A DNA stretch of 64,000 nt, from positions 4,216,001 through 4,280,000 of the forward strand of contig OX424564.1 in assembly GCA_949152475.1 (NCBI GenBank). The letters are read 5' to 3'. The notes beneath the pieces are model-generated. The model was not told the origin of the DNA, did no database searches, and worked only from the letters and a program-made list of their open reading frames with translations. Positions 4,422 to 41,800 of the stretch are shown here, piece by piece. A program made the translations under genes and the position numbers. Each line of letters starts with the position of its first letter. Positions within the stretch are counted from its first letter, which is position 1. This DNA is from Terebella lapidaria. Lineage: Eukaryota; Annelida; Polychaeta; Terebellida; Terebellidae.

Positions 4422-5706
4422 TTAGGCCAAGGGCCAAAGATAGGTTACCGGACAATGTTTAATATTTTGGATGTTAGCCAGGTCACTGGTTGAATTCAAG
4501 GTCAAGAGAATATTCAGCATATATAACATTAAGCATACATCATATCCACAGTTGATTGCTAAGCTGTAAATTCAATAATCAGAGAGATATTAGCAATTTT
4601 GTGCTGTGGCCTTGAAAATGAAGGGGCAAAGGTCAAATTCAAGGTCATCAAAATATTCATTGTATATCATTTTCTATATCATGTCCACAATTGATTCCCA
4701 AGCCATACAGTCAATGAAGGAGCAAGATATGAGCCAGTTTGTCCTTGGACCTTGGAAATGAGGTCAGAGGTCAAATTCAAGGTCACGAGAATATTCAGCA
4801 TATATCATTTTCTATATGTTCACAATTGATTCCTAAGCTGTAAAATCGATAATAAGTGAGATATTAGCCATTTGGTCCTGTGACCTTGAAAATGAGGTCA
4901 AAGGTCAAATTCAAGGTCATGACAATAATCTGCATATATCATTTCCTATATGTTTATAACTGATTGCTAAGCTGTAAAGTCGATAACAAGCGAGATATTA
5001 GCCATTTTGTCATGTGACCTTGAAAATGAGGTCGAAGGTCAAATTCAAGGTCATCAGAATATTCAGCATATATCATTTCCTATATGTCCACAATTGATTC
5101 CTAAGCTGTAGAGTCGATAATAAGCGAGATATAAGCCATTTTGTGCTCTGACCTTGAAACTGAGGTCAGAGGTCAAATTCAAGGTCACGAGAATATTCAG
5201 CATATATCATTTCCTATAGGTCCACAATTGATTCCTAGTCTCTAATCTCAATATCAAGTGAGATATTAGGCATAATGTGTCCCATTATAAAGCATAGGAG
5301 AATTTAACATGGGAAAGTCCCATATGGACCGAGTGCTTGAATATGGACGATTCAAGCACAACGAAATTTATAGACATCATAGGAGTACATATGAGGAGTG
5401 TTATGTATCAAAAAGAAAAAAAGTTACTGAACAGATTTTGAGAAAATGGCCGCCAAAGTCCAAAATCAGGCAGTTTTCGTCGAAAACGGCCGCCATTTTG
5501 AAAAAAATGCGAAAATCAAAAAACTAAAAAATACCTCCTTCTTGAATTATTTTTAAGTATTTTTGTGCAAAATTTCAGAAAAATTCGCCCGTAAACAAAA
5601 AAGATGAAAATGTGGACGACGACGACGACGGACGACGACGACGACGACGGACGACGGACGCAACGCCATACCAATAGGTTATCGGACCATAGGTCCGGTA
5701 ACCTAA
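4422..5706 (+). mobile_element. Helentron/HINE-like element with nuclear-receptor motif tandem repeats, copy A
   Basis: The left end has a small hairpin (TTAGGCC-AAG-GGCCAA), then TAGGTTACCGGAC (4441-4453). The centre is about six ~130-bp tandem units, each with a GAGGTCA-AAGGTCA direct repeat, TCAAGGTCA and a TGACCTTGAA half-site. A GACGACGGAC microsatellite (5615-5660) follows. The right end is a stem-loop, GGTTATCGGACC-ATA-GGTCCGGTAACC (5677-5703), ending CTAA. The left TAGGTTACCGGAC is the inverted copy of the right GTCCGGTAACCTA. No long ORF; the 72-codon frame at 5309 recurs in other copies but has no recognised domain. Confidence 0.65.
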
Positions 5707-5852
5707 CAAACAAACATGAAAATGCATTTGAATTGCTCTTTGGCGAAAGGTACATATATATAATAAAAAAATAATATAATAAAAAAACACTTTTACATTT
5801 ATATAATCCTTAAATCATAAGGATCATAAGGACCGATTGGTGATTATGTCAT

Positions 5853-5951
5853 GGATAAAGCACGAGAAACAGTGAATTCGTGCCTACGAATTCACGAGCG
5901 CAACGCGCGAGTGAATTCGTGAACGAATTCACTGTTTCGAGTGTTTTATCC
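5853..5951. repeat. Imperfect palindrome, GAATTC-rich
   Basis: Arms 5853-5881 and 5923-5951 are inverted repeats with about 26 of 29 positions matching, both containing AGTGAATTCGT/ACGAATTCACT. A second hairpin with the related motif GTGGATTCGT-GCGG-ACGAATCCAC lies near 6990. Together they may mark the ends of one decayed element of about 1.15 kb. Confidence 0.55.
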
Positions 5952-6419
5952 GACTTAGAATATTGCGCTTACAATCACAATGCGACCAACAGATTACTCG
6001 TACACATATATATTGTTTCTGTTAGACTTATTGCAAGTCAAGCATGACAAAGATGTATTCATAAATAGCCGGCAACCGAGTGAATTTAGATTGCTCAACT
6101 CAACATGGTTTTCAACACGGGTTACATGCATTCATTTAGTGAGCGAGTAGTATTAGTGAGCAGGGTTTGATGCGTGGAACGTGTTTCAATGGACATCTCC
6201 ATTGGATGATGGTGAGTTTTAATATATTGTACTCAAAACACAGCGAAACAGTGACCTATACCACACACATTATCGCATTTCTGTTACTGGACATCGACTG
6301 GTTGACATTAAATTTCAACAAATACAGGTTCAAAATTCTAGTCAAAACATACCTTTGGGATCGATTTTCTGCAAAGTCTTCTAGTCATTTTGTATAACTG
6401 GTTTGGTGCTTTCCTTATT

Positions 6420-6460
6420 ACTATTCTGTACTTATTTTGTACTCTCTTTTGTTCTCATTC

Positions 6461-6491
<31 letters not shown>

Positions 6492-6795
6492 TTTATTATT
6501 TTATAATTATTATTATCATCTATTTATTCAACAGTATTATTAGCCTTTTTTCATATGTCTATTTTGTTATTATTGTTAATATTATTCCATTGTACAATTG
6601 TCTTTATTAATTTATTTGTTGTGCCCAAATTCAACTCTTGTTGCCATTCAGTCTTGTTTTCTATACAGAGGACCACATTGGAAATAAGTGTTTTTACTAA
6701 TACTTTTATGTGCTATCCTCGGTGATTGTTATACATCATTTTACATGTACTTGTATAATTTGTACCCAAATAAATCAAATCAAATCAAATCAAAT
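6420..6795 (+). mobile_element. Probable non-LTR retrotransposon 3' tail with microsatellites
   Basis: An AT-rich stretch with a (TTA)n tract at 6462-6500 runs into TTTGTACCCAAATAAATCAAA and a (TCAAA)n tail at 6772-6794. Such A-rich simple tails are typical of CR1/L2-type LINE 3' ends. No coding part is recognisable, so the call rests only on the tail. Confidence 0.35.
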
Positions 6796-7442
6796 GGCAG
6801 ATAATTTGGACACATTTTTAAATAAAATCGTGGATAGTATGGTCGCATTTAATGCTGCAAACATTCTGAACGATGTTGGAAATTCAACATTAGATGATCT
6901 TGAGTTTACTTATAATGCACTAGTGCAACATGACATTAAATGCATCAGTGAACCAATGAATTCGTATGGGGCAAACGGTGGATTCGTGCGGACGAATCCA
7001 CTGTTCAGACAATGGTGTGACGTCACAACAATATTTTATAGAAAAACAACTTGGTTGGTCTGGTAAATATGCACTTTTATACATTGACACGTGGCCAGCT
7101 TTGAATCAATGACTACGTAGGAATGCTTAGTAACACATATAATAAACAACATTATGCATTATGTGTCAATAGGATTCAATATTGTGATTTTCTCCATTAT
7201 AGCCATATTTTGCAGCATTATTTCCCAAGGTTCAACACACCAAATTTGAGAAAACGATTCCAACGAAAGGAAATAATGGCAAATCATATGCATTCAGTAA
7301 TGGAGTACAAAGGGACATAAGAATTGAATAGTATGGGAATACACAGGTAAATGTCTACGATTGATACCATTATGTTATCACACGGTAAGGAATACAAGAA
7401 CAGTCCTGTCTCTGGTAGAGGCTCCTCCAGAAGAACTTCAGT

Positions 7443-8383
7443 TTATTGCCTTTTCTTTTCGTTGTCGTCCGGAATAAGTTCTCTCATTGGGGTGAAGCCG
7501 AGCAGGACTTTGTGTCTTCTCCGCTGTTTGGTTTTCCGGAATTGTGCGTTCGTCCCATGTAACCAGTCCAGTATACCACTCGAGCCGTAATTCACATTGA
7601 ACCTGGGTAAATAGTATAAAAACTATGGTATTAGCTGCCAACAATTTGTTAACTGAAGCTGGATACGTATTATGGCATAGTACGTGAATGCAGATTAACA
7701 CACCATACGTGTATGAGATAGCAATTTGATTTGTTTCCTGGATATTCTCTGATTACGAATACACTGTAGCTTGTTTCGGAGGTTTATTACTAACTTGAGA
7801 TGATGGAAGTCATGGGCTTCCGGTGACAACATGAAGGGGAGGTGGTAGTTACTGTGCTGAATAATCGTCCCAGTCAGGCCTATAAGATACCTGCGAATAT
7901 ATTATAACATATACTGCACAAACCGCCAATAATTTAATGTAGTAATAAAACTCATATTACGTGAAATACTTGCGCAAACTGAATATTTCAAGTGTTCTCT
8001 GTCTTAAAATTCCCTTACGATGATACTTCTTAACAGGCAAGTAATGTATTAATTGTATTTAATATCGTATTAGATCTAGTGTTGCCATATGGTGCTTGTA
8101 TGTTCAGAAGTGGTTTTACACCAGTGTCATGTACATGTTTACAGTTCAACACCCAAATTGTTGACCATAACCGCGAAGGCTCCTCCACAGAAACTTCAGT
8201 TTTTTTTTTCTTTTTCTATGTCCACTCTCTATATGTTTTTTATCAATTAATTTTTTCAGGGGGTAGCAGGAAGACAACCTTCTTAGGTTATGCTACTCCC
8301 CTCATCTCCACAGTCATGATATTTGTTGTATATAAAGTTTTGAGTTGAATAATTTGTAAAATGTATGTGGTTTTGAGAAATAA

Positions 8384-8415
<32 letters not shown>

Positions 8416-9782
8416 ACCACTACTGACCAGATCCACTGTGTGACGAGGTGGGACTTCATGACGATGCCGCCGGCCGCGAAGGGTAGGATGTTACAGACGA
8501 TGTGCTCCAGGGGGTGGGCGTAGACACACGTGATCCCGATAGGGGCCGTCCACTCGTGGTGCTGCTTGTGTACGTGTTTGTACAGAGGGCCCCAATGTGC
8601 AAGTCTGGCGGGGGAGGCGTGCGTGTCCATGGAAACGAGTTGTGTCCGGGGCGGGGCAGGAAAATATGGCTTTCGTAACTCACAAAAAAAATTATATAGA
8701 CAATGCAACTTGAACGATGAAGTGAATTTCTTTTTTTTCCAGGAAAAAAAATTTCTACATGACATGCGCTTCACAGTATATGAAATGATATATTGAGTGT
8801 GATTGACTCTTCTAAAATATATCACAATTTCTCCCTGATAAATAATATTCATATAATACAGCTCATTATTAATAATTTATTCCAGCAAACCTGTGTGTAT
8901 AATAGAAGCCGATCTCCTGGACAATATAGCACACTGCAATATCCCGGAGGATCTGGAGACCACTTGGGATGTCCTCGGGGCGCATGGAGCACCCCCGGGC
9001 CACCCTCAGGGGGTAGAGCAGCAGCAACACTGGGGCTGCCACGAGGGTCTGGTTGATCAGGGCAACTTTGATCGCACGCCGCAGCTTCACCGGGTCCAAC
9101 TTACGGGGAAAAGTAAATAGAGTTCATCAAGGCATTTTGTAGACTGAATTCTTTGATGCCTATTTCGATTTCTACTTAATCATATTAGAGTGTATTTTGG
9201 TTGAAGTATTTTATTAAAGATTGAATATTGAAATTTATTCGCTGACAATATCAAATTTCATAGAAAAATGGAATTTTTGCAAGACGATGTCGACGAATTC
9301 AACCCAATCGTCAAAATTTGTTGGCCTATGTCTGAGTCGTCTACAGAATTAATCATTCCATGGCTATTTGCCGGCATAGAGTTGTTCTCTGTGTTGTCAG
9401 TATGCCCAATATTCAAAGATTTCCTCGCAATATCAACTCTACGGTACCTCTAAGTCAGACAACCCCTTCCCACCCCCACAACACGTACCGGCTGGTTCTG
9501 TCCGGGCTGTACTTTATACTTGAGCATCCACTTGGGCCATCCTTTGAGGTCCACGTACATGAACAACCCACACAGGAGCCAGAAGTATGTCTGTATCATA
9601 ACAATCGTGCCTGTAGGTGGAAGATTTCTATCGATCACCTTGAAAATTTGTTTTGATTAAAATACAGTTTACCAAATATCCACAGTAGAAGACAGCTCAC
9701 CGACTCCCCCGAAGAGGAGATCCTTGCCCTTGAAGACATCGTAGTACAGGTGACTGTATAGAGTCTTGAGGGAAGCGCCCAT
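7443..9782 (-). CDS. FAXDC2-like: FAXDC2-like fatty acid/sterol hydroxylase, copy 2 (complete)
   Basis: Complete six-exon gene predicted to encode 281 residues. Minus-strand exons: 9782-9701, 9610-9489, 9099-8891, 8604-8428, 7890-7795 and 7602-7443 (TAA). All junctions are GT-AG and all phases close. The four histidine clusters of the family are intact: HRLAH 137-141, HKQHH 150-154, HSNYH 209-213 and HDFHH 223-227, so the di-iron site should be functional. The C-terminus (FNVNYG...LDWLHGT...HKVLLGFTPM) closely resembles human FAXDC2. Hydrophobic stretches near residues 30-50 and 80-100 suggest membrane segments. The exon 4 donor (GTCAGT) is followed within about 10 bases by an (ATCT)n microsatellite that seems to be the tail of an inserted retroelement, so the start of intron 4 is heavily modified. 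Confidence 0.92.
8250..8416 (+). mobile_element. Retroelement-like 3' end with (ATCT)n tail in intron 4 of FAXDC2-like copy 2
   Basis: GGGGTAGCAGGAAGAC...CTACTCCCC forms an inverted pair at 8259-8300. AAATAAATT and an (ATCT)n run (8388-8415) follow and end about 10 bases from the exon 4 donor. Tail-type microsatellites of this kind usually mark LINE or SINE insertions. Confidence 0.35.
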
Positions 9783-11025
9783 CCTGGTGTGGGAGATCGG
9801 GCGGGGAAATCAGGGAGGGTCGGGATACCCGGTAACTCCTCGGGGTAATTGACAATGCCTCGAGACAACGCCAGAGGTAGGGACTAAATGATGTAAACAA
9901 AGATCGTCCCGCAAACTGACTGCGTGACCTGCTCTGACAAAGTCCACCTTTCTCGTTCCGATTGATAACAGGTCGTTCAAAGATCATAAGACGACACATA
10001 TGTATGAGTCGCATACACAAAAACATATATGTCAATAAGCATATTGAATGTGTTTTGTTGTGATGATATATTGCTATGTCGATTATCACTACTTTTTACC
10101 CACCTCAACATGGACCATTACTAATTGTACATATTTTGGACGCACTACAGGGCTTTCAAATGAAATGAATATGAGGTTTATATCCATGATCTAAATGAAA
10201 GAAAACATGACTCAACTCCATAATTTGTCGATCGTCGAGAGTTGTCTATTAAATTGAATCGATGTCACGTCTTGTATTCACAAAATGATGAATGGCGTGA
10301 TGCACAAAATCCACGTTCAAAAAACAATATTCACAGGAAACGTCCATTTCAAAAGTTGGTCGTAATTATGTATAAACCGTAATCAAAATTATTAACCAGT
10401 AGATCTAGGCATTTATCCTATAAGTCCGGATCTAGATCGTAGCAAAAAGATACTTAGTGCTGATATTGAACTCGAGTGACAATGTAAGAGTATATCAATG
10501 TTGTTGTATGCTAACAAGCTACGTAGTAGTATAAATGGTACTGAATTGTACTAAATGACCCAACTTAATGGTACTACGATATCCAGCCTAGCGTCAAACA
10601 GCCCATAAATCAGTATGCCGATGGTCTGTGGGAGAATTTATATTAATTTTGGGGCTTTTTCTGGTAAAAACAATGTACAAAATGGTCCATGTGGTAAATA
10701 GTTAGTGAAAATTCAGTAAAATAAAAATATGGAATATATTTGGTTTGTTATTGTCATCATCAATATCTGGTTCTCTCGGTGGTAACAGGTTGATACAGAT
10801 ATTTCAATTGAAGGAGAACAACACAGATCGGTTCATCTCGTTCTGTTTTATTTCAATTTGTTTATTTCAAGAATATTACATGTGTATAATTATAAAACTT
10901 TCGCATAATTCTCAACAAAAATCAGACAGCAAACCATGACTTAATTCACAATAGTCTCATTTTCTGCAGGAAACTGACAGCAACCTTGCACAAAAAGGCC
11001 TGACAGGAATGAGTTTGTATTTGTG
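9783..11025. other. Spacer between FAXDC2-like copies 2 and 3
   Basis: This 1.2-kb AT-rich stretch separates the start of copy 2 from the end of copy 3. It should contain the copy 2 promoter and copy 3 3' UTR, but I can point to no specific motif. The short frames here are not supported. Confidence 0.5.
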
Positions 11026-12827
11026 CTAAGCGGCCTTGGCCTTGACTTCCGGGACCCTAATGCGCATGGGCGTGAGACTGAGCAGGATCTTGTGGCGTTT
11101 GCTGGCCACGTTCTCCCGGTACATGACGTCAGTGCCGTGTAGCCAATCAAGGAAGCCGAACACAGAACAGTAGTTCACGTTGAATCTGAAAGCAAAATAT
11201 ATATATCACAAAACATTCGTTTGTGTTATTGCCGATTCAGTTTAAGAAATATATCGTCGATATGAATGAATATTTTACGAAGTAATTGGCATTGACAGGA
11301 GTGGACGTATACTTGAGGTGGTGGAAGTCATGAGCCTCTGGGGAAGGCAAAAACGGCAGGTGGTAGTTGCTATGGGCGATGATCGTGAAAGTCAACCCCA
11401 AAGTGTACCTACAAATGAGTAACCACGCACGGTGAATCGACTGGTACAGAAGTGCATCCAGATATTGAGTATTCACTTACTTCCAAAATTCCTAATTTCC
11501 AATCAGAGAGACCGCTATGAATCCAATCACAAGTCATTCACCAATATCAATATCACATAAATTATATTATTTTACAATTCTGAACTGTTTTGGCAATATT
11601 TCTATGATGAAATATAGGTAATGATATCAACGAAGTTAATACTTTAACGAAGCTAAATCCAGCTGGTTTTTGTACTATATTCCGCTCCAAGAACCTGACC
11701 ATATAAGGGTAGTGAACATGTGAGAACCCGCCAAGACCACTCCGAATGTGAAGGGCATCAGGTTACAGACGATGTGCTCCAGGGGGTGGGCGTATACACA
11801 CGCGATCCCGATAGGCGCCGTCCACTCGTGGTGCTGCTTGTGTATGTGTTTGTACAGGGGGCCCCAATGTGCCAGTCTGCCGGGCAAGTATCAGGCTAAT
11901 GATGGGTCAGTATTTGAAATAATGGATACTCTTGATGAATGAAATATATGTACTCAAATAAATGGAGGTGAAATAAATCTTTGAACCTGTGTGTATAGTA
12001 GAATCCTATCTCCTGAACAACTGCACAGGTGAGAATGTCCTTGAAGACTGTTGCTACGGAGGGCAGATCCTGGGGGAGGAGGGAACAGCCCATGTACTGC
12101 CGAAGGGGGTAGATTAACACTAGGTACGGGGTACTGATGAACATCTGGTTGATAAAGGCCACCTGAACTGCCCGCCTGGTTCGTTCAGAATCCAGCTGTA
12201 GCGAGAAACATATTTTTGGGGACGTATTGTTTCTTATAATGTAATGTTTCACTTCGAGAAGAACTGCTCTTTCAGCTCAGCAATCTGAGCATTGACTTTC
12301 CAAAAATTTCATTATTCAAAACCTAACACAAAGATGGCCCGTGATGTGGGATAAAAGGTCAAATTTCGTTTTAGGTGATTATGAATCGGCATAATGTCAC
12401 ATGGAATTAGTAATCCCAACAGAACTTTTCATAACCAACCGGTTGGTTGACTCCGGGTTGAACTTTATACTTCAACATCCATCTGGGTTTTCCCGTGATG
12501 TCAGGAATCATGAAGAGACCTGATACGCCCCAGAACACGAAGTTCATCCATACCAAAGTTACTGGAATGCATACAACGTATGGCAAACTTAATATCCGTA
12601 GTTGAAGTTAAACTGTTAAAAGTAAACGGCTAAAACTGATGAGGATATGATGATATATTTGTATGAACCGAGTTGGTAACGCTCCTTAGACTGATCTCAA
12701 TTATTCTTATTTAGTTGTTTTCCCCTCTCCAATCTGATATTATGGACATACCAACAATATAGAACATGAACTGATCTCTTCCAAACACATCCTCATACAG
12801 GTAACTCCAGAACTCCGTCAAACCCAT
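11026..12827 (-). CDS. FAXDC2-like: FAXDC2-like fatty acid/sterol hydroxylase, copy 3 (complete)
   Basis: Complete six-exon paralog of 279 residues. Minus-strand exons: 12827-12752, 12561-12440, 12195-11987, 11876-11700, 11408-11313 and 11185-11026 (TAG). Exons 2-5 have the same lengths as in copy 2 (122, 209, 177, 96 nt) and the same phases, so the two copies share one ancestral structure. Di-iron ligand boxes are HRLAH 135-139, HKQHH 148-152, HSNYH 207-211 and HDFHH 221-225. The C-terminal exon encodes LDWLHGTD and HKILLSLTPM, as in human FAXDC2. It is the upstream member of the head-to-tail array. Donors GTTGGT (intron 2) and GTCAGG (intron 4) are weaker than consensus but lie at the conserved positions. 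Confidence 0.93.
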
Positions 12828-24576: not shown

Positions 24577-24835
24577 TTAGAATCGGCTTGTCATAGAGGA
24601 TGACGTTTGAACTCGACCTAAAAATTTTTGCTGAATCTGCATTGTTTCATTTTTTATCAATATCTCAGGAATGATGTTTTTTTCGGACTTATTTAGGTGG
24701 GCAGATGTGTAAACATGTGTCACAGAGGATGACATTTGACCTCGGCCTAAATTTAATGGCTGAATCTGCATTTTTCATTTTTTTATCAATATCTCAGAAA
24801 TGATGTTATTTTCGGACTTATTTATGGGGGCAGAT
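24577..24835. repeat. Tandem units with TATCAATATCTCAG core
   Basis: Two units of about 130-140 bp, each with GAGGATGAC.TTTGA, GCTGAATCTGCAT, TTATCAATATCTCAG and TTTTCGGACTTATTTA. Related units recur at 25970-26530. Confidence 0.6.
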
Positions 24836-24889
24836 CAGTTTTGATATTTTAGTTTCAAAATGTTCCCCTCATGTATCTTTATAATGTGA

Positions 24890-25967
24890 AAAAGTTTCGA
24901 TGCTTTTGAATCGCCGGTCTGCGTGTGGCGGCCATTTTGATGTTTTTTACGGGGCCCAAATAGTTCTTTCCCATGTTAAATTGTCCTATGCTTTATAATG
25001 GTCCACGATGTTCTTGATATCTCACTAGAGATTAGAGACTAGGAATCAATTGTGGACATATAGGAAATGATATATGCTAAATATTCTCGTAACCTTGAAT
25101 TTGACATTTAACCTCATTTTCAAAGTCAGAGCACAAAATGGCCAATATCTCGCTTATTATTGACTTCACAGCTTAGGAATCAATTGTGGACATATAGGAA
25201 GTGATATATGCTGAATATTCTCGTGACCTTGAATTTGACCTTTGACCTCATTTTCAAGGTCAGAGCACAAAATGGCTAATATCTAGCTTATTATCGACTT
25301 TACAGCTTAGAAATCTATTGTGACCATATAGGAAATGATATATGCCGAATCTTCTGATGACCTTGAATTTGACCTTTGACCCCATTTCCAAGGTCAGAGC
25401 ACAAATTGCTAATATCTCGCTTATTATTCACTTTACAGCTTGGGAATCAATTGTGGACATATAGAAAATGATATATGCTTAATATCCTCGTGACATTGAG
25501 TTTGACCTTTAACCTCATTTTCAAGGTCAGAGCACAAAATGGCCAATATCTCGCTTATTATTGACTTTACAGCTTAGGAATCAATTGTGAACATATAGGA
25601 AGTGATATATGCTGAATATTCTCGTGACCTTGAATTTGACCTTTGACCTCATTTTCAAGGTCACAGCACAAAATCGCTAATATCTCGCTTATTATTCACT
25701 TTACAGCTTGGGAATGAATTGTGGACATATAAGAAATGATATAAGCTTAATATTCTAATGACCTTGAATTTGACCTTATTTTCAAAGTCAAAGCACAAAA
25801 TTGCTATTATCTCGCTTATTATCGATTTTACAGCTTAGATATCAAATGTGGACATATAGGAAATGATATACTAGTATGCTGAATATACTTGTAACCTTGG
25901 AAGTTACCTATTTGCTAGCCGGTAATCACCTATTTGCTAGCCGGTGAGCTACAGGTCCCTTGGACCT
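24890..25967 (-). mobile_element. Helentron/HINE-like element, reverse orientation, copy B
   Basis: About eight reverse-oriented ~130-bp units with TTGAATTTGACCTTTGACCTC and GCTTATTATCGACTTTACAG. The left terminus, at the high-coordinate end, is CTAGCCGGTGAGCTAC followed by an AGGTCC-AAG-GGACCT hairpin (25953-25967, read on the minus strand). The low-coordinate end contains the GGCGGCCATTTTGA segment seen before the right end of other copies; the terminal hairpin itself is not preserved. Confidence 0.55.
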
Positions 25968-25969
25968 AT

Positions 25970-26530
25970 GTTTTGTCAATATCTCAGAAATCGTAGGGAA
26001 AATGATGTTATTTTCGGACTCTTCACCTGAAATAAACATGTCTAAAAAGTATGTTGAGTAATGTCTGAACTTGGGCCAAAATTTTTCAACTGAGTCGGCA
26101 TCTTTCATTTTCATCGATATCTCAGAAACTGTGCATCCTGGATCGAAATGGACATAATTTTCGGACACGTGGCCCTAGACATTTCTTCGAGGTACATCGG
26201 GTGAACTTTGGCATCAGCCTAATTTGTTTTCGCTGAGTCGGCGTTATCCATTTTCGTTAATATCTCGGAAGTCATTGAGCGAAACATACATTATTTTAAG
26301 AGTTGTCACACTAGACTAATATGATTATCGGGCATGTTGGGTTACATTTGACCTCGGCCTAAAGTTTTCACACGAAGTTGACACTTTTCATTCATGCGGA
26401 TATATCCAAAACCGTGAGTCGTAGAGTTAACCGGACGTTATTTGCAGACTCTTCCCCCTTCACAAACATGTCTAAGAGGTATGTCAGGTGAAGTTTGCAC
26501 TTAGCCCAAAATTTTTGAGCTGATTCTGCA
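25970..26530. repeat. Decayed tandem array, ~145-bp units
   Basis: Four to five diverged units with TATCTCAGAAA, TTATTTTCGGACTCTTC, AACATGTCTAA.AGGTATGT and GGCCTAAA.TTTT. They are related to 24577-24835, so copy B and the following LINE appear to be embedded in or beside this array. Confidence 0.5.
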
Positions 26531-26689: not shown

Positions 26690-28655
26690 GGAAACCAAAG
26701 TGAGCAAAGCGAGAGGTTCTTTTCCGCAAGTATCGCGACATCTGTGTTGCTGACTTCACTGCGGACATAGAAGCGGCTTCTGCATTGAGAGACCATGAGA
26801 ACAATGCTGACTCACTGGTCGATGCTTACAACTCTTGCATCCGTGAAATTATAGACAAACATGCACCACACGGCAAACAATCCATGACGATCAGACCACA
26901 TGCACCGTGGTCCATGGTACAGGAAAACAATTAGGTCTGCAAAGCAAGAGCGCAGACGACAGTGGCGCGCGCGTCTCTCTGTTCATCATTTGCAGTACAC
27001 AGTCACACTGCTACTTCAGGCAAAACGTGACTACTATGCCGAGAAGATAGAATAATGCAATAAAGATATACGGGCCTTTTCAAACTGACGAATGAGCTTA
27101 TGGGTATGAACTCGGATGTCAAGCTGCCGACAAGGTCCTCATCTGAACAGCTGGCAAACGAATTCAACGGCTTCTTCATAAATAAACTTACAGACATCCG
27201 CTCCAAACTTTCACTGTCCCCTGTGCAGGTGGGATCAAACAAGCTCCAAGCATGAGCTTGACAATTTCACGATATCCACCAATTCTGCCCTGGCAGATGA
27301 CGTCATGTTCGAGGGAATGTCACTTGCAAACTTCGTCCCCTACTACGGAGATTGAGGTGGCCACCTTGATTGCGAAGACACCCTAGGCCTAAAAGTCATC
27401 CAACCTGGATCCGCTGCCAACATGGCTGCTAAAGAAGTGCTCTACTGCGCTGGTCCCCATGATTACAGCGCTTGTAAACAAATCACTCGAGGAATCATAT
27501 GTGCCAGAAAGCCTCAAATCAGCAGTCATACGACCATTACTCAAAAAGCCTGGCATGGATGTTGAAAGATGACATCCAACCTGGCATGGATGTTGAAACA
27601 ATAGGCCGGTTTCAAACCTTCGGTGGTACCAAATCGCCTGGAGACCCATATTGTTAACAATGTACTTCATGACAGTCTGCAGTCGTCTTATCGCCCTATG
27701 CATTCGACAGAAACGGCCCTGTTGAGGGTACATAATGATTACTGAAGCTTTGGACCAGAGATCGATGGCAGCACTGGTACTCCACGATATTTCTGCCACC
27801 TTTTACGTTATAGCAATGATTTTACGATCTTTGGTTATAGACCACAATATTCTTACTCAACGTCTCGATAATTCTTTTGGTGTCACTTCACATACGCTCA
27901 AGTGGTTGACCTCCTACCTGAGTAATAGGACACAATGTGTTTCAATTGACGACACCTTGACTTCTGACCAGTTGCTCCATTATGGAGTACCACAAGGATC
28001 AGTCCTTGGACCTCGTATATACTGTATGTACACACGCCCCATTGGTGAGATCGTCAAAAGACATAACCTACAGTATCATTGTTATGCCGATGACATCCAG
28101 ATATATGTCACCATTAAGCGGACTCATGGGAATAAGTGTTACAGAGAATCGAAGCCCGTGTCTCAGAGGTAAGTATTTGGATTGCTGTCAATATGTTGTA
28201 GCTGACTCAGAGTAAGACTGAACTTTGTGTTTTCTCCCAGGCACCATGAGAGCATGCAGAACCCTACCGTTACTATAGGTGACAATGTCATAAAGGCTGT
28301 TCACTCTGAAAAACCTTGATGTCATTTTGGATGACAAACTAACAATGGAGTAACAGGTCAATGATGTTTCACGGCGTTATTTTCAAATTCGGAAGATTGG
28401 CCACATCCGACGCTATCTTACACAGGACTCTTGCAAGACGCTGGTTCACGCGTTGGTTACTTAGCGTCTTGACTATGGAAATGTTCTGTTGCATGGAATC
28501 CCCCAAACGCTTACAGAGCGTCTCCAACGCGTCCAGAATATGGCTGCTCGCCTCATCACTCGAACTAGAAAACGAGCTTTCTATGGCAACAGGTGCCTCG
28601 CAAAGTCAGCAGCCATCATGTGGAACGAGTTGTTATAAATGTTGTATATTATTAT
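26690..28655 (+). mobile_element. Decayed CR1/jockey-type LINE (endonuclease end to reverse transcriptase)
   Basis: Reading across several frames and stops, the plus strand gives RKYRDICVADFTAD, LVDAYNSCIREIIDKHAP, RPHAPWSMV, LFKLTNELMG, LANEFNGFFINKL, SAVIRPLLKKPGMD, VLHDISA(T)F, DHNILTQRL, WLTSYLSNRTQCVSI, YGVPQGSVLGPRIY (about 27975-28020) and YHCYADDIQIYV (about 28074-28110). The end resembles FYGNRCLAKSAAIMWNEL. These match the linker, RT motifs and C-terminus of CR1/jockey-clade LINEs. Stops and frameshifts make it inactive. A (TTA)n tract at about 28645 is the likely tail. Confidence 0.85.
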
Positions 28656-31545: not shown

Positions 31546-32806
31546 AAACATAAGGCCTCCCGATTTTCAATCGGGATGCCTAATAACAATAGGTATAGCT
31601 CTATTCCAAAGCTATACACCACATGCATACTTAAACATGGAATGTCGATACCATCACACACACACTCTGGCACATACTTCTTCGGAAATATACCCTAGGG
31701 GACAAGTATTGTAATTCACTGGTAGGCTAAGATACAAAAACAATCATGGTATAAACAAAATGCAATAGAGTGGAAAATAAAAAGCAGTCCAAAAATACTA
31801 TTCGATGGCAGTTTCCAACACAGTCACAGCACAAAACAAGGAGAATATGTTGATTACCACTAGTGGTGTAGATATGTACATGTGTAAGCACAAGGATGGA
31901 CGGTGATTTATCACATTATTGCATTGGAGGCAGCAGTATGTTCAAACTGAAAAGTTTGTATTTTAGTCTTGGAGAACAATCAGTGCTTCAGTTGTTCCTT
32001 CATAAAGTTGACAACATCAATATAGATTGGTGCACCTGATGAATACGGATAAATCAATGGGATATTTCATCTGATTCAAAGAGCAGTTTTTAGAGTGTAC
32101 GCACACAACAGAAATATTTCTACCAAAATTGCTATGTCAAAACATGATATTATGTGTTCTCACAAACTTGGTCGAAGAATAAGACCGACATGAACTCTGA
32201 ATATTGGTCCATCCATCATCAGCTGAATTTGACTTGATCAATAACATGATTATAAAGTATTCCAAATATCCACAATCCGACCGGTTCAAGATTCTATCTA
32301 ACATACCAAAAGTTCACTAGTGAATAACAAATATACGGTAAACAACTACTGAAAGACTGATGTCCAAGTACCTACAAAAACAGTACTACCCAGAATGGTA
32401 AACTCACTTTTATATCAGTTTCTGGCACAACTCCGTGTTCTTTACAATAGTCAATATTTAACTGATAGTACAACTAAGTATTAGGATACCTCAGGCAATC
32501 ACAGAAATCTCAGACATAACTCATTCACATCGCCGTGTGCCCAGCTTGATATAAGTAGTACAAATACTGATAAACACAAAGCATGTTGTCCACAAGATAT
32601 TGCAACTCCAATATTTTCCAGGGTAATATCAGACAAATTTTCAATAAATACAAAACAAATAAACACAACCACTGATCGCCGAACCCAGCAACCTTTCACG
32701 AACATCCACCAGGTGTCCTCAGCTCCAGTGATGTGACACGAAAACATCCAGGGCTAAATACTGCTGTAGTGCTGATTGGCTGAATTTCAGGACAGAAAGC
32801 TTCCAG
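31546..32806. other. Spacer downstream of NEK11
   Basis: AT-rich DNA between the dispersed repeat and the NEK11 stop codon. It presumably contains the NEK11 3' UTR. The short frames show no similarity. Confidence 0.45.
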
Positions 32807-35800
32807 TTAAGACGGTAGTTCTGATTGTGCTTCTAAAAATAACAACTGGTCTACGATGAAGCAGTCATTAGGGTTTTTCACGATTTTCTTGAGTCCTATC
32901 ATAATGTCGTTCTCGTCAATGCTCTTGGCACCTGTCCCGCTGAACCCACGCGCCTCCTTCAGGTATTTGTAGGCCTTTTCAAAACTTGACTTGCCAAACT
33001 TCTTCTCAGCCTCGCTGGAGGTCAAAGTCAAGGTTAACACGCAATGGCAAAACATGAGTATAGTATAGCAGTGACTACCAGTAATTACATGTAGTTTGTA
33101 TCAGTAACAGAGTCTCTTTGTTGTCAATTATATTGGTCAATTATATTAGTCAATTAATTTTGAAATATAATCAAATTCAATGAATATATCAATTCAGATA
33201 GATATTGGAAAACGAGATCAAATTTTGTGATCCTCCAAAACGTAGCATTTTATTCACACTTAGAAGTGACAGTCAAGGATACACCCTGAGGTTCTTGATC
33301 CTCATTTCTCTAGCCACGGGCCCAAAGGCTCCCGATTGTGTGTCATCCACCAGCGTCTGGCCTTTTACTGTCGAAGAAGTAAAACAACCACATCAAGAAC
33401 AGCTGATTGGTACTCACACCCACATCTCATGGATACAAACACAAGACCCACGTACTGGTGTCGCCCTTGTCGAGGGCAGTCTCCATGAAGTGGATGAGGT
33501 CCTCTATCTCGGAGTCCTTAGAGACGACCGTGTTGACCAGTGTGCCGCCTGCCTCGTCGTCATCGCTGCCAGAGGCGCCATTCTCGAAGTCATCATACTG
33601 CGAGTAGTAAGTTTCTGCCAATTCTGGGTTGCTGGGAATACCTGACATTGGAGGAAACAGCTGGGGGTGAAATACTGCTTGCAAATATCTTTCATAAAGA
33701 AAGGACAATCATATTTCAATTCATTGTTGTGTTGCAAATTTTTGTGAAACCTGATGATTTGCACAACATTTCTACCTTAAATGTCATTGACTCAACATTC
33801 ACAAAAAAAACTATCAATTTACAGACCGTCTTTGAAGTCAAGCGAGGAGTTTTTCGGGTCGTAGATCATCTTGTCTCTCATGGGTGTGATTGGCCGGTCA
33901 TCAGCAGACAGGTGGTGTCGTCTGTGTCCCCCGCGAGCCCCCTTGGCGCCGTGGGCCCCCTGTAACGGGGACTCCAGGCTGTAGGAGAAGTGTTCCTTCG
34001 CGGTGTGGAATCCCACAATGTCGTCATCGCTGTCCTCCTCCTCTGAGGATGCAGGCTCCGGTTCCTCTTCAATCCGGCCGTCCGCGTCATAGCTCGGCAT
34101 ATCTGAGTGCCGTCGCACTGAGTGGAGATGAATACTACACGTGCTTTAAATTCGGGAGGATAGCTTGGATTCTTAACACTGGTAAGACTTTATACTGAGT
34201 GGTCAACAAAACCTCAAGATACCATCTTGATGTGTTGAAATTGTTGCTGGTAATGTAAGATCAATGTTCTGGTTTTCATGCAAGTAATTTAATTGATTTC
34301 TGGTCAGCTTGAACTTTATTCTACATTATTATTCCACTTTATTAAAGTTGTGGAGCCACGATAACTTCAGGAATAAATCATGATCAGATTAACATACTTG
34401 GAGCTGTGTAGGGTCGAGTATTCAGGTTATAATCCAGGTCATCACTTTTCGTGCGCCTGTGTGCCTTATCTTCCCTTGCCCATGGGGGATCACCCTGTCG
34501 GACATAAAGTGTCATCATGAGTACAGTCTGGTAACATATTTTATTCAAATCATTCCCAAGCACAGCAGAAGCACTTTTAATAGGAAATTGACTGCTTGTA
34601 GTAGTAGTAAAACACTCGGGCTCACACTCGGACTCAACAGCTTGTCATCAAGCACTCACTGTTTTTGCGTATGGATTCATCGTTTCCCGTAGTTCGTCAT
34701 ATTTGGCCTTGTTTTCTCGGAGCTGAACTTTAGCTGCCGCTCTGCAAACGAATGATCATACTCAATAACTACTAGTAACCATGGTAACTAAACAGATAAT
34801 ATTGATGACGACATTGATGATATTATCTTTATTACTGAATGAAAGTTACAATAAGCAACTGACGCTAGTTTCTTGGCGTGTTCATCTGCCCGTTTCTGCT
34901 TTTCTATCCTCATTCGTTCCCGAGGGTTCAGATTTCTCCATCGCTTCTCTTCGGCTTCCTTCTGCAGTTGTTCTTTTGTTTTCTTCTCTTTACTGGAAAA
35001 AAAAAAATTAGCCCAAAGGCTAAGATAGGTTACCAGACAATTTTGGTTTGGCCATGGCAGCATTGGCAGGTAACAGAGCTTTTACCAATCAAGGTTCGCA
35101 GTGTAAACATATGATCTTGGGATTTACCAATCAAGGTCATCCGTATGAACTTCGATGTTACCATAACATGTATGTGTGCGGGATTTGATATTCTATATGT
35201 TGGGTGGAATCGTTTAGGGTCATCATTAGTTGTGCCATATATGTCTTCCTATATGTTCATAATGCAAACATGAGCTCTATCTGCAAGCATTTCATCTATA
35301 GAGGCCAATCTGGGCATTTTTTTGACCCCAAAATGGCTGTTTTGACCTTTCAAGGTCATCGAAGGTCAAATTCAAGGTCACCACACAAGTCGCCATATAT
35401 GACTTCCCATTTGAAAATGCGAATTTCTGAGCTCTATCTTTAAGCGTTCTATGAGTACAGTCCGGACAGCTCCCATTATGAAGGAAAAAAGTGCCAAAAA
35501 TTTTCCAAGTCCAAAATTTTTTTCAAAGGGTGAAAAAATTTTTTTGCATAGAAATGGCCCAAAATGGATAGTAATGCGATTTGGGGCGAAAAAAATTTGT
35601 TTTCGCCGACTCGTCAAAAATTCAAAATGGCCGCCACACGGAGATCGGCGTTTCAAGGGCAACAAAACTTATACGTGTCACAGAGGTATATAAGAGGAAT
35701 CTTTTTAAGCAAAAATCTCAAAACTGATCAGACAGTTTTTGAGAAAATACAGACCAGGTGCAAATTTGAGCATTTTTCGACCCAAAAATGGCTGTTTTGA

Positions 35801-38800
35801 CCTTTCAAGGTCATCCAAGGTCAAATTCAAGGTCACCACACAAGTCGCCATATATGACTTTCCATTTGAAAGTGCCAATTTCTAAGCTCTATCTTCAAGC
35901 GTTCTATGAGTACAGTCCTGACAGCTCCCATTAAGAAGGAAAAAAGTGCCGAAAATTGTCCAAGTCCAAAATTTTCTTCAAAGGGTGAAAAAAAATTTTT
36001 GCCCTAGAAATGGCCCAAAATGGATAGTAATGCGATTTGGGGCGAAAAAAAAATTTTTCGCCGACCCAACAAAAATTCAACATAGCACCAAGGGTGCTGT
36101 AGCTTACCGGCAATCATGAGAAACGCAGAGTATTGATTTTCCAACATATACATTGTTACACTGATCTTGAACTCTAATCGTCAAAAAATGTTCGTAAATG
36201 TTGCTGGAAACACATTTTCTGTATGGACTATAGTACGAAATCAAATTACACATCACAAAGGTACATAAAGAGAATCTTATACATGATTTTGAGAAAAACT
36301 GTCTGAATAGATTTAGACAAAATGGCCACCAAAGACAAATTTCATCGTTTTTGACCTTCCAAGGTCATTATAATAATGAGCATTTTATAGTCTAGGATCA
36401 CCAACTCAAGTCGGTCTCTCTGACTGCACAATTATTATCCCCGGCAGACCTGTTCACTCCGACACATACTCAACCTCCTGGGAGGCATACAGCTCCATGT
36501 GCAGCCATTATTTGGCGCAGGGAAACTGTGCATACACAATTGCCATCTCTGTCTATTGCCAGGTGCCCAATTATACTGTTTGGGTGAACAGCATACAGCA
36601 GCGCAGGTGAATGCACAAACAGGGTCACCCATCCATGTATTACCCACGCCTAGCGTTGCTTAACTTCGGTGATCTTGCGGGTACCGGTGTGTCATGCGCT
36701 ACAAGGCCGTCATTGAAGGTCAAATTCAAGGTCATCACTCAAACCGCATTATATGATTTCCCATTTGAATGTGCCAATACTTAGGCTCTATTTTGAAGTC
36801 TTCTATGAGTTTACTCCGCACAGCTCCCATTATGAAGGAAAAATTGAGTGAAATTTTCTAAGTCCAAAAAATTTCTCAATGGCCAAAAAAATTTTTTTTT
36901 TGCTGGAAATGGCTCAAAACGAATAGTGACTTGATTTTGGACAAAAAAAATTTTTTTTGCTGACCCGTCAAAAATTTAAAATGGCCGCCACACGCAGACA
37001 GGCGATTCAAGGGTAACTAAACTTATACACGTCATAGAGGTACATGAGGGGAATGTTTTAAAACAAAAATCTCGAAACTGATCACACAGTTTTTGAGAAA
37101 ATGGCCATCAAGTCCAGAATTGGTCATTTTTCGACAAAAAAAGGTCGTTTTGACCTTCCAAGGTCATTGAAGGTCAAATTCAAGGTCATCACTCAAACCG
37201 CAATATATGGTTTCCCATTTGAATGTGCCATTACTTAGGCTCTATCTTCAAGTGTTCTATGAGTTTACTCTGCACAGCTCCCATTATGAAGGAAAATTGG
37301 GTGAAATTTTCTAAGTCCAAAAAATTTTTCAATGGCCAAAAAAAAATTTTTTTTTTTTTGCTGGAAATGGCTCAAAACGAATAGTGACTTGATTTGGGAC
37401 AAAAAAATTTTTTTTCGCCGACCTGTCAAAAAATCAAAATGGCCGCCACACGCAGACCGGCAATTCAAGGGCAACGAAACTTATACACATCATAGAGGTA
37501 CATGAGGGGAATGTTTTAAAACAAAAATCTCAAAACTGATCAGACAGTTTTTGAGAAAATGGCCATCAAGTCCAAAATTGGTCATTTTTCGACAAAAAAA
37601 GGTCGTTTTGACCTTCCAAGGTCATTGAAGGTCAAATTCAAGGTCATCACTCAAACCGCAATATATGGTTTCCCATTTGAATGTGCCATTACTTAGGCTC
37701 TATCTTCAAGTGTTCTATGAGTTTACTCTGCACAGCTCCCATTATGAAGGAAAATTGGGTGAAATTTTCTAAGTCCAAAAAATTTTTCAATGGGCAAAAA
37801 AATTATTTTTTTTTTTTTTGCTGGAAATGGCTCAAAACGAATAGTGACTTGATTTGGGACAAAAAAAATTTTTTTCACCGACCCGTCAAAAAATCAAAAT
37901 GGCCGCCACACGCAGACCGGCGATTCAAGGGCAACGAAACTTATACACATCATAAAGGTACATAAGAGGAATGTTTTGAAACAAAAATCTCAAAACTGAT
38001 CAGATAGTTTTTGAGAAAATGGCCTCCAAAGTCCAAAATTGGCAATTTTTCGTCAAAAATGGCCGCCAAATCGGCAAAAACGATTCAATCAAAAAAATTA
38101 AAAAAACGTCTTTAGATACTGGCCCAAGGTATGTTCTGACAAATTGATGGGGAAATTCATCACGTCAAAAAAAAGTTACAGACCCGGACGGACGACGGAC
38201 GGACGACGGACGACGGACGAAATACCACGACAATAGCTTATCGGCCCAAAGGGCCGGTAAGCTAAAATTAGCCCAAGGGCTAAGAAAGGTTACCGGACAA
38301 TATACATTTTAGATATTAGCCTTTTGTCCAGTGACCTTGAAAATAAAGTCACTGATAAATTCAAGGTCATGAAATTTTCAACAAATATATCACTTCTAGT
38401 ATGTCCACAATAAATTTCTAAGCTGTAAAGTCGATAATAAGTGAGACATTAGCCATTCTGTGATGTGACCTTGAAAATGAGGTCAAAGTTCAAGTTCAAG
38501 GTTATGAAAATATTCAGTATACAGGAGAACTCCAGCCTGCGGTCACTCCAGAAATGTGGTCAACCCATGCATTGTGGTCAGATGCATTGGTCCCGAACGC
38601 CAGCATAGGCATTTACATGTTAAGGTTACGCCTATAATGTGGCCACTCCCCTTATCCACAATGCGGTCAGTGTATCTGGTCACAAAAGCCCATAAAATCA
38701 CACAATACGGCCACCAAGCAGCCAACGTCCCCCCCCCCCCCCCAAACTCACTGATGCGGTCAATTGAACATTAGCCTCAAGCGGCCAGCCGTCTGCAAGT

Positions 38801-41800
38801 CTTCATTCACCGATGCGGTCAGCTGAACATTTACATTAGCCAAGAGCAGCAAGCCGACCGGCTGTCTGCGTGTCACTTCTTCACACCTTTCTTCTCTTGG
38901 CTTACCCAAACGTTGATAAACACACCTCGTACTCGCATCATGTTGATCATGATTTGGCTAAACGCCACCAAACAACAATCACATCTTTCTTCAAAAAGTG
39001 ACATTCAGTTGTTCTAAATATTCTGTTAGTAAACTGTATTGACATTTTAGTATTTGTGTTTCAAATATTACATTTATGATATAACTTGGTTCAATAAAAT
39101 GCTATTCACATATAAACTACATGTACATGTTTTATTTAACTCATACACATGTACAAATTGTATAATATATGTTGATTTTCGCTTGAGTTAACATCAGATA
39201 AACAATATGGCCGGTGCAAAATATGGCTTGAGTCCTATAATGTGGCCACTCCTATAATGTGGCCAAAATCACTGGTACGATGGGTGACCACATTACTGGA
39301 GTTCTACTGTATATCATTCCTCTATATTCGCAATTGATTCCTATGCTGTAAATGTAAGTATCAATCTATTACCACCAATACAATCAGATTTTGATGATGC
39401 CAATAAGAAACGTAAAATACTACATTTTGCAATAGAAACAAACAAAGCCCGACCAAATAGTTTATCCAAAGACACACTGGCATCTTCAGGGGCAGACAAT
39501 GTGTTAAATGTAGTTGTTTCTACTGTACACCAGATGGAATTAGTATACAACTGCCCAACAACCTATGAAAATAATTTAGAAATCCGAATCTAACCCCATG
39601 GAATAGATACATGACAAGTACAAAAGTACCCAATCACAAGCCCGAAGGCTACTGAGTTGATGGTATCCTCGGGGACAGATTTAACGTCCGCCAGTAGTGA
39701 CACCGACTCAGTGGTACAAATGTAAGTATCAATCTATTACCACCAATACAATCAAATTTTGATGATGCCAATAAGAAAGGTAAAATACAACATTTTGCAA
39801 TAGAAACAAAGCCCGACCAAATAGTTTATCCAAAGACACACTGGCGTCATCAGGGGCAGATGTAAAGATGATAATAAGCGACATATTAGCCATTTTGTTC
39901 TCTGACCTTGAAAATGAGATCAAAGGTCAAATTCTAGAACACCAAAATATTCAGCATACATCATTTCCTATATGTTCACTATGGACCTCTAAGCTGTAAA
40001 TTTGATAATAAGCGAGATATAAGCCATTTTGTATTCTGACCTTGAAAATAAAATGACTAACCTTGAAATTTAGGGCAAGGGTCAAATTCAAGGTCACTAG
40101 AATATTCAGCATATATCATTTCCTATATGTTCACAATTGATTCCTAAGCTGCAAAGTCGCTAATAAGCAAGATATTGGCCATTTTGTCCTGTGACCTTGA
40201 AAATGAGGTCAAAGGTCAAATTCAAGGTCACGAGAATATTCAGCATATATCATTTCCTATATGTTCACAATTGATTCCTAAGCCATAAAGTCGATAATAA
40301 GCGAGATATTAGCAATTTTGTCCTGTGACCTTGGAAATGAGGTTAAAGGTCAAATTCAAGGTCACGAGAATATTCAGCATATATCATTTCCTATATGTTC
40401 ACAATTGACTCCTAAGCCGTAAAGTCGATAATAAGCGAGATATTAGCAATTTTGTGCCATGACCTTGAAAATAAGGTCAAAGGTCAAATTTGAGGTCATC
40501 AGAATATTCAGCGTATATCCTTTCCTGTATGTCCATATTTGATTCCTAAGCTGTAAAGTCGATAATAAGCGAGATATTAGCCATTTTGTCCCATGACCTT
40601 GAAAATGAGGTCAAAGGTCAAATTCAAGGTCACGTGAATATTCAGCATATATCATTTCCTACATGTCAACAATTGATCACTATGCTGTAAAATCGATAAT
40701 AAGTGAGATATTAGCCATTTTGTCCCGTGACCTTGAAAATGAGGTCGAAGGTCAAATTCAAGGTCATGACAATAATCTGCATATATCATTTCCTATATGT
40801 TCATAATTGATTCCTAAGCTGTAAAGTCGATAAGAAGTGAGATATTAGCCATTTTGTCCTGTGACCTTGAAAATGAGGTCAAAGGTCAAATTCAAGGTCT
40901 TCAGAATATTCGGTATATATCATTTCTTATATGTCCACAATTGATTTCTAAGCTGTAAAGTCGATAATAAGCGAGATATTAGCCATTTTGTTCTTTGACC
41001 TTGAAACTGAGGTCAGAGGTCAAACTCAAGGTCACGAGAATATTCAGCATATATCATTTCCTATATGTCCACAATTGATTCCTAGTCTCTAATCTCAATA
41101 TTAAGTGAGATATAAGGCATAATGTGTCCCATTATAAAGCATAGGAAAATTTAACATGGGAAAGTCCCATTTGGGCCAAGTTTGGCCCAAAATGGCCCAC
41201 TTCGAGCGATTCAAGCGCAACGAAACTTATACACATCACAGGAGTACATATGAGGAGTGTTGTGTATCAAAAAGAAAAAAAGTTACTGAACAGTTTTTGA
41301 GAAAATGGCCGCCAAAGTCCAAAATCAGGCATTTTTCGTCGAAAACGGCCGCCATTTTGAAACAAATGCGAAAATCGAAAAACAAAAAAAAACCTTTCCT
41401 TGAAATATTTTTAGGTATTTTTGTGCAAAATTTCAGAAAGATTCGATCATATACTTTAAAGATAAAAATGTGAACGGACGACGGACGGACGACGGACGAC
41501 GGACGCAACGCCATGCCAATAGGTTATCGGACCATAGGTCCGGTAACCTAAAAATGGCCGCCACACGGAAACCGGCGAATTTAGGGCAACCAAACTTATA
41601 CATATCACAGAGGTATATGAGGGGAATCTTTTGAAACCAAAAACTCAAAACTGATCAGACAGTTTTTGAGAAAATGGCCATCAAAGTCCAAAATTGAGCG
41701 TTTTTCAACAAAAACGGCCGCCATTTTGAAAAAAATGCGAAAATCAAAAAACAAAAAAATACCTCCTTCTCAAAATATTTTTAGGCATTTTTGTGCAAAA

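What the first reader, a model, noticed from the sequence alone, without database searches (positions are those of the whole stretch)
4422..41551. Repeat family with covarying terminal hairpins: candidate Helentron-associated (HINE/DINE-like) elements
Several copies share one architecture: a small left hairpin (CC-AAG-GG core), a short left motif, central tandem repeats, a GAC/GGAC microsatellite, and a right stem-loop followed by CTAA. The left motif equals the 3' arm of the right hairpin, inverted. Copies A and E use TAGGTTACCGGAC with GGTTATCGGACC-ATA-GGTCCGGTAACC; copy D uses TAGCTTACCGGC with GCTTATCGGCCC-AAA-GGGCCGGTAAGC. Left motif and both hairpin arms changed together. The left hairpins also vary with pairing kept (TTAGCCC/GGGCTAA, AGCACC/GGTGCT, AGGTCC/GGACCT). 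This matches published features of Helentron-type rolling-circle non-autonomous elements and suggests selection on structure.
Basis: partly seen in the sequence, partly recalled or inferred. Interest (0 to 1): 0.75.

Follow-up and report, generated by a model that had tools for sequence, protein, structure and literature searches.

The report
Non-autonomous Helentron transposons with mismatched hairpin
These repeats are non-coding rolling-circle transposons (Helentron-associated elements, HINEs) of a kind already described in oysters and insects; the unusual part is that their front-end DNA hairpin keeps one unpaired position in families with unrelated hairpin sequences, a testable hint of how the transposase recognises them.

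Summary
The copies are HINEs: non-autonomous Helentrons read on the window's minus strand. The genome (761.6 Mb) holds 11,418 F1-type 5' ends; stem pair 3 is changed on both sides in 1,132 and on the subTIR side alone in 130. Insertions lie in T-runs, with nothing outside the run duplicated at 10 usable empty sites. A Rep-coding Helentron shares the F1 3' end: 6 of 6 sampled copies end there, and 23 of 30 such ends have a Rep upstream on the same strand. Its 5' end was not reached. Not mentioned in the texts I read: the 5' hairpin has a central unpaired position (C/A in F1 and F2, C/C in F3, whose stem is unrelated). Re-paired C-G forms are about as rare as decay of dead copies predicts, while mismatched C/C in F1 is about 19 times commoner than in the control. 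Helentron Rep may read a mismatched hairpin; this is untested.

The parts
4422..5706 (-). HINE copy A (F1)
5675..5705 (-).
5615..5656 (-). A: GTC/GTCC microsatellite (GAC/GGAC on + strand)
4493..5273 (.). A: central 134-bp tandem repeats
4441..4453 (-). A: 3' subTIR
4422..4437 (-). A: 3' palindrome (TTAGGCC-AAG-GGCCAA on + strand), imperfect
35008..36080 (-). HINE copy B, 3' part (palindrome 35008-35023, subTIR from 35026)
41552..41898 (-). HINE copy B, 5' part; ends inside the 5' hairpin, outer arm missing
36081..38265 (-). HINE copy D (F2), inserted in a T-run of B
38234..38264 (-). D: 5' hairpin; stem pairs 3 and 11 changed on both sides relative to F1
36084..36111 (-). D: 3' palindrome AGCACC-AAG-GGTGCT and 3' subTIR TAGCTTACCGGC
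38266..41551 (-). HINE copy E (F1), head-to-tail against D
41520..41550 (-). E: 5' subTIR + inverted repeat
38268..38298 (-). E: 3' palindrome (38268-38283) and 3' subTIR (38286-38298)
40060..41120 (.). E: central 134-bp tandem repeats
56013..56628 (+). HINE copy F: tandem repeats and decayed F1 3' end (palindrome 56613-56628)
61977..62356 (+). HINE copy G: tandem repeats and 3' subTIR; no palindrome seen after it
24833..25970 (+). HINE copy H of another family: 3' subTIR GCCGGTGAGCTA and palindrome AGGTCC-CTT-GGACCT; 5' end not found

Best explanation
The repeats are HINEs, non-autonomous Helentrons moved in trans by Rep-coding Helentrons of the same genome. Shown: the anatomy (5' subTIR + IR hairpin, microsatellite, tandem repeats, 3' subTIR, 3' palindrome), insertion in T-runs without duplication outside the run, and a Rep-coding family that ends in the same 3' terminus. 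Inferred: Rep binds both subTIRs, nicks at the T-rich 5' border, a single strand is displaced by rolling circle, the 3' palindrome ends the round (as the 3' hairpin does in the Helitron Helraiser, PMC4778049, passages), and the strand is joined into a T-run. Because one protein must read both ends, the two subTIRs and the IR change together. Also inferred, with much less certainty: Rep reads the 5' end as a folded hairpin whose central position must stay unpaired.
For: Anatomy. Copy number: 6,517 exact hairpins; 11,418 F1 5' ends. Covariation: stem pair 3 changed on both sides in 1,132 (98 of 100 listed are C-G), on the subTIR side only in 130 (change on the IR side only was not counted); 3 of 5 sampled 5' ends with the changed pair 3 are followed by an F2 3' end. 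T-run insertion: D+E inside B with paralogous empty sites in the window; 14 of 26 full elements have an empty-site match, 10 usable at 7 different targets, for example T5[element]T7 against T7, T5[element]T4 against T4, F3 T2[element]T4 against T4. Coding partner: 150 scored Helitron_like_N loci; 8 of 8 sampled Reps carry RGSPH, the Helentron residue according to PMC4067079; 6 of 6 sampled copies of one Rep class stay homologous up to CCGGTAACCTTTCTAGCCCTTGGGCTAA plus T-run and differ beyond; of 30 exact ends genome-wide 23 have a Rep of this class 6.2-12.6 kb upstream on the same strand, about 0.01 expected. Endonuclease-like sequence (PF03372) adjoins the end of the Rep frame in the C9 copy. 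Mismatch.
Against: The 5' end of the coding Helentron was not found in 7.1 kb upstream of the C9 copy's reading frame. In that copy the Rep frame closes where the endonuclease-like frame, one base over, runs on, so a fused protein is not shown. Two other coding loci (C14:32.6 Mb, C8:36.7 Mb) showed no F1-F3 terminus as their own end in what was fetched; the C14 stretch has two decayed F1 3' ends upstream of the frame. One locus of the same Rep type (C2:19.09 Mb) and 9 others of the 32 have no exact F1 3' end within 15 kb, and 7 of the 30 ends have no such Rep. The 3' palindromes of A, E and F fold no better than many shuffles. T-run length makes T|T insertion and a T-only duplication indistinguishable. 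The helicase was not scanned. Function of the mismatch is inference only; copies are related, so counts are not independent events.
Confidence: 0.93

Rival explanations
1. A DDE-type MITE (the old label of the oyster Pearl repeats) whose inverted ends are ordinary terminal inverted repeats.
For: Non-coding, high copy, inverted motifs at both ends.
Against: Ends are asymmetric (hairpin at one end, subTIR + palindrome at the other); no duplication outside the T-run at 10 usable empty sites; the coding element with the same 3' end has a Helitron_like_N Rep.
Confidence: 0.02
2. Canonical Helitron (TC...CTRR inserted between A and T; definition recalled and as given for Helraiser in PMC4778049).
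For: Helitron_like_N Reps abound; family F3 ends in CTAG before T.
Against: F1/F2 start AGSTTACC after Ts and end GGGCTAA or GTGCTATG; F3 starts GTATCC after TT; 8 of 8 sampled Reps are RGSPH rather than RGLPH; subTIRs and IR present.
Confidence: 0.03
3. The conserved central mismatch is only common descent: one founder had it and nothing selects it.
For: Most F1 copies are relatives; re-paired C-G (about 30) is close to the A-to-G number of a control position (34), so nothing acts on single dead copies; re-paired T-A (about 46 of 110 subTIR changes) has no control of its own; hairpin family F4, if it is a Helentron, has its mismatch elsewhere.
Against: The unrelated stem of F3 has the unpaired position at the same place (100 of 100 listed not re-paired); one H-like hit has C/T there; C/C in F1 is about 268 against 14 in the control while C/A recurs in F3 (7 of 100 listed); stem pairs 3 and 11 have changed as Watson-Crick units.
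Confidence: 0.4

Closest known systems
Cg_HINE elements of Pacific oyster Crassostrea gigas (PMC7492417; abstract and Results section read, passages elsewhere; no figures or supplements)
   Same: 5' subTIR with complementary IR, GTCY/GTCC microsatellite near the 5' end in several elements, central tandem repeats in one orientation, 3' subTIR followed by a palindrome, T-rich insertion without TSD, element-specific changes in subTIR, IR and stem
   Different: Here 134-bp and 458-bp central repeats (oyster clusters 138-181 bp); a Rep-coding Helentron with the same 3' end is identified here; a fixed central stem mismatch is not mentioned in the text I read
HINE / Helentron of mite, mosquito and Drosophila, including DINE-1 (PMC4067079; passages read)
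   Same: subTIRs, 3' palindrome, TT or T-rich insertion, variable terminal Ts described as part of the element, Rep with S between G and P
   Different: Different sequences; distances to termini differ; 5' IR forms one 13-position hairpin with a central unpaired position here; endonuclease fused to Rep there, in an adjoining frame in the one copy read here
Pearl, DTC84, MgE repeats of bivalves (named in PMC7492417)
   Same: Tandem-repeat-bearing elements of comparable architecture; Pearl was later placed with non-autonomous Helentrons
   Different: Sequences not compared here
Bacterial REP hairpins read by the HUH enzyme TnpA_REP, and IS608/ISDra2 ends (PMC8266576; passages read)
   Same: Imperfect single-stranded hairpin with a conserved irregularity; in E. 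coli REPs restoring a regular stem eliminates or severely affects activity
   Different: Bacterial enzymes, and another group of REPs has perfect palindromes; analogy of mode of recognition only, no homology claimed

Membership tests
HINE (non-autonomous Helentron) | Subterminal inverted repeats of about 11-15 bp at both ends | tested here: met
HINE (non-autonomous Helentron) | Inverted repeat next to the 5' subTIR and palindrome near the 3' end | tested here: met
   the 3' palindromes of A, E and F are weak folds
HINE (non-autonomous Helentron) | Insertion in T-rich/TT site without target-site duplication | tested here: met
   a duplication of Ts alone cannot be excluded
HINE (non-autonomous Helentron) | No coding capacity | tested here: met
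   No stop-to-stop ORF of 120 aa or more inside A, D or E; no tblastn match at E 1e-3 of three Helentron ORF pieces in the window and 20 sampled stretches
HINE (non-autonomous Helentron) | Shares its 3' end with a Rep-coding Helentron of the same genome | tested here: met
HINE (non-autonomous Helentron) | Shares its 5' end with that Helentron | tested here: inconclusive
   5' end not reached; an F1-like 5' hairpin with pair 3 changed on one side lies at C9:36036710, same strand, surroundings unread
Helentron (coding partner) | Rep motif with S between G and P | tested here: met
   8 of 8 sampled Reps, of 150 scored loci
[quoted passage not shown]
   PF03372 just over its cut-off in the C9 copy, but in the frame adjoining the end of the Rep frame; one copy tested
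Helentron (coding partner) | Pif1-type helicase domain | not tested
   that stretch was not fetched
Canonical Helitron | 5'-TC ... CTRR-3', insertion between A and T | tested here: not met
   (F3 alone has CTAG at its 3' end)
DDE MITE | Terminal inverted repeats with fixed-length target-site duplication | tested here: not met

The most novel reading that the evidence does not exclude
Helentron 5' ends are recognised as a folded single-stranded hairpin whose central position must stay unpaired (C opposite A, C or T; no sign of an amplified lineage with the pair restored), in a 6-1-6 stem with a 3-nt loop, whatever the stem sequence. This would be a eukaryotic counterpart of the bulged hairpins read by bacterial single-strand HUH transposases.
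Probability: 0.45. Interest if true: 0.62.

Novelty: new member of a known kind. Interest (0 to 1): 0.42.

Why it matters
The family itself is of a kind already described in other invertebrates. It matters because it links a very abundant HINE family (over eleven thousand 5' ends) to a Rep-coding Helentron by a shared 3' end, gives empty sites suggesting that a set number of Ts travels with the 5' end, and offers a sharp structural hypothesis (a central mismatch that must be kept) about how a Helentron Rep recognises its 5' end.

Tried and rejected
The viral and prokaryotic contig collections gave no exact match to the degenerate F1/F2 hairpin. Rfam at gathering threshold found only a 5S-like stretch in the window and nothing in five fetched loci. 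Pfam on 20 of the 32 window ORFs of 120 aa or more found no Rep, helicase or transposase; it did find a reverse transcriptase fragment. Coding loci C14:32.6 Mb and C8:36.7 Mb were followed first and showed no F1-F3 ends of their own; the C14 element is over 12 kb and its two copies stay 99.4-99.9% identical through all that was fetched from both. Hairpin family F4 (AGGCATCCCGATT-GAA-...) has its mismatch at pair 5, not 7, and no 3' end was found; it is left out of the mismatch argument and would speak against a general rule if it proves to be a Helentron. An F3-like old element upstream of the coding frame was first taken for the Helentron's own end; the C9 and C5 copies share the bases before it, so it looks nested.

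Rows dropped and biases: four of the 14 empty-site matches were not used (three match another insertion junction, one lies in a T/C tract); four of the ten used lie at one recurrent target. In one search the script dropped hairpins with G at IR pair 7 to fix orientation, so its pair-7 column cannot show re-pairing. The scans that could have shown paired stems are 55 rows, 3 not HINEs, 52 of 52 HINE hairpins unpaired at pair 7; 7 of 7 F3; but the 20 stretches were chosen around exact C/A hairpins, so many of the 52 are there by that choice. The genome counts do not have this bias. Letter counts were made by hand on the listed rows. The Fisher test treats copies as independent and is not used. 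After the filing check the confidence in the best explanation went from 0.94 to 0.93 because the endonuclease lies in an adjoining frame.
Full report
What is there. Three copies with both ends (A 4422-5706, D 36081-38265, E 38266-41551) share one order of parts. A fourth, B, starts at 35008, is interrupted by D and E, and resumes at 41552-41898, where it stops inside the end hairpin. Three partial copies, F, G and H, lie on the other strand. The window comes from a 761.6-Mb genome.

Orientation. The published oyster HINEs read, 5' to 3': subTIR, complementary IR, microsatellite (GTCY/GTCC in several), tandem repeats, 3' subTIR, palindrome (PMC7492417, Results section). The minus strand of the window reads so: TTAGGTTACCGGACC-TAT-GGTCCGATAACCTA, GTCC/GTC repeats, 134-bp array, GTCCGGTAACCT, a palindrome such as TTAGCCC-TT-GGGCTAA, T-run. 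In window copies A, E, F, G and H the 134-bp array has one orientation relative to the ends (read by eye), as reported for oyster.

Families. In 20 stretches of up to 10 kb taken around hairpin hits on contig C1, plus the window (283 kb in all, not a random sample), a structure-first search found three families with both kinds of end. F1: 5' AGGTTACCGGACC. F2: AGCTTACCGGCCC. F3: GTATCCCCCGAAC-AAA-GTTCGGCGGATAC, whose 3' end is CGGGGGATAC ... CGGTCG-TAGG-CGACCG ... GTCTAG before Ts. The F3 stem is unrelated in sequence to that of F1. Each family has its own matching 3' subTIR and palindrome.

Covariation. Genome-wide, stem pair 3 is changed on both sides in 1,132 hairpins; of the 100 listed, 98 are C-G there, one is T/G and one C/A. 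Changed on the subTIR side only: 130; on the IR side only: not counted. Pair 11 comes as C-G, mostly with loop TTT, or A-T, mostly with loop TAT, among the listed rows. Of five sampled 5' ends with the changed pair 3, three are followed by an F2 3' end. The counts are sequences, not independent events; there may be few founding changes.

Insertion. D and E lie head to tail inside B; joining B's flanks gives a sequence matched without the insert by repeat units of B and D, and the insert sits in an A/T run. In the sample, 26 elements had both ends and flanks; 14 had an empty-site match, of which 10 are usable, at 7 different targets. For F1 the filled site is T5 or T6, element, T4 to T7, against mostly T4 to T7 when empty; for F3 it is T2, element, T4 against T4. 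No base outside the T-run is duplicated in these. The 5' T number hardly depends on the target: F1 has 5 in 28 of 49 and 4 to 6 in 42 of 49, F3 has 2 in 7 of 7. With a 4-T target and 5 Ts on the 5' side (L028 +5915), the Ts are best seen as part of the element, as PMC4067079 says of mosquito Helentrons (passages). A T-only duplication is not excluded. Head-to-tail F1-F1 junctions occur 279 times as exact matches.

Coding partner. Helitron_like_N gives 150 scored loci, a lower bound, many in open frames above 2,000 aa. Eight of eight sampled Reps have RGSPH, the residue that PMC4067079 gives for Helentrons. Fetched frame pieces match DUF6570 and, in two other loci, OTU. In the C9 copy the Rep frame closes and an Exo_endo_phos match (just over its cut-off) lies in the frame one base over, overlapping that end; a fused protein is therefore not shown. 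Six of six sampled copies of one Rep class are homologous up to CCGGTAACCTTTCTAGCCCTTGGGCTAA followed by Ts, and differ beyond. Two of the six were read as RGSPHIH; the others belong by score. That end is the F1 3' subTIR, spacer and palindrome; in the last 1.4 kb of the C14 copy almost only this stretch of 33 to 51 bases is shared with the sampled HINEs, apart from one weak longer match. A longer version of this end occurs 30 times; 23 of 30 have a Rep of this class 6.2-12.6 kb upstream on the same strand, 22 of 32 such Reps are so placed, and about 0.01 pairs are expected. The 32 Reps are the matches with at most 106 bits, chosen by score. The 5' end of the coding element was not reached; an old F3-like element lies upstream of its frame.

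The unpaired position. In F1, F2 and F3 the 5' hairpin is six pairs, one unpaired position, six pairs and a 3-nt loop. A scan that would also have reported perfect stems gave 52 of 52 HINE hairpins unpaired there, though many were chosen by their exact C/A sequence. Genome-wide for F1: C/A 11,418. IR base not A: 304, of which the 100 listed are 88 C, 10 G, 2 T. SubTIR base not C: 110, of which the 100 listed are 42 T, 42 A, 16 G. So re-paired C-G or T-A make up about 76 of 11,832, roughly 0.6%. A control A in the same arm (pair 5) shows 66 changes: 34 G, 18 T, 14 C; a control C was not run. The re-paired C-G class, about 30, is what the control predicts, while C/C, about 268, is some 19 times the control's 14. 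So a mismatched variant was amplified and there is no sign of an amplified re-paired one. In F3 there are 2,582 ends; of the 100 listed the IR base is C in 92, A in 7, T in 1, G in 0. The single H-like hit has C/T at this place, in a shorter stem with a larger loop. Re-pairing would make the F1 hairpin about 4.8 kcal/mol more stable in a DNA model. The functional reading I favour is that Rep reads a hairpin with a distorted central base, as TnpA_REP does for bulged REPs (PMC8266576, passages). Common descent without function is the main rival, and F4 with its mismatch at pair 5 is an unresolved counter-example.

Known or new. The elements are new members of a known kind. I found no statement of a fixed central mismatch in the passages of PMC4067079 and PMC7492417 that I read, nor in the titles and abstract starts listed by searches; figures and supplements could not be read, so it may be visible there.

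Noticed in passing
window 36593-36714 (-): A 5S rRNA-like stretch (Rfam 42.8 bits) lies inside HINE copy D, perhaps a captured or inserted 5S-derived piece.
   Followed up: no
window 50955-52969: A tandem array (213-bp unit) with a repeated palindrome around GGAAACAGTCCCCGGGGACTATTTCC; part of the unit matches the empty target site of an F1 element in L026.
   Followed up: partly
window 31553-31581 and L012, L013, L019: Hairpin family F4 (AGGCATCCCGATT-GAA-AATCGGGAGGCCT on the minus strand of the window) after TT, with an A/G mismatch at pair 5; possibly another Helentron family, 3' end not found.
   Followed up: partly
window 41884-41898: Copy B ends inside its 5' hairpin: inner arm present, outer arm replaced by flank, as if truncated at the loop.
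   Followed up: no
L014, L016, L017, L020, L024: Five F1 elements are inserted at the same sequence (cagtaac followed by Ts), a T-run that occurs inside other F1 elements: a recurrent nested target.
   Followed up: partly
G000 C9:36036710-36036741 (+): An F1-like 5' hairpin with pair 3 changed on one side, about 12.6 kb upstream of the C9 Rep on the same strand; could be that Helentron's 5' end, letters not available.
   Followed up: no
L042/L057 (C9) and L059 (C5) upstream of the Rep frame: An old F3-like HINE lies at a shared place upstream of the coding frame of this Helentron class; its 3' end is also seen in the C14 and C15 copies.
   Followed up: partly
window 27726-28169 (+): Reverse transcriptase fragment (RVT_1), probably a retrotransposon remnant.
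   Followed up: no
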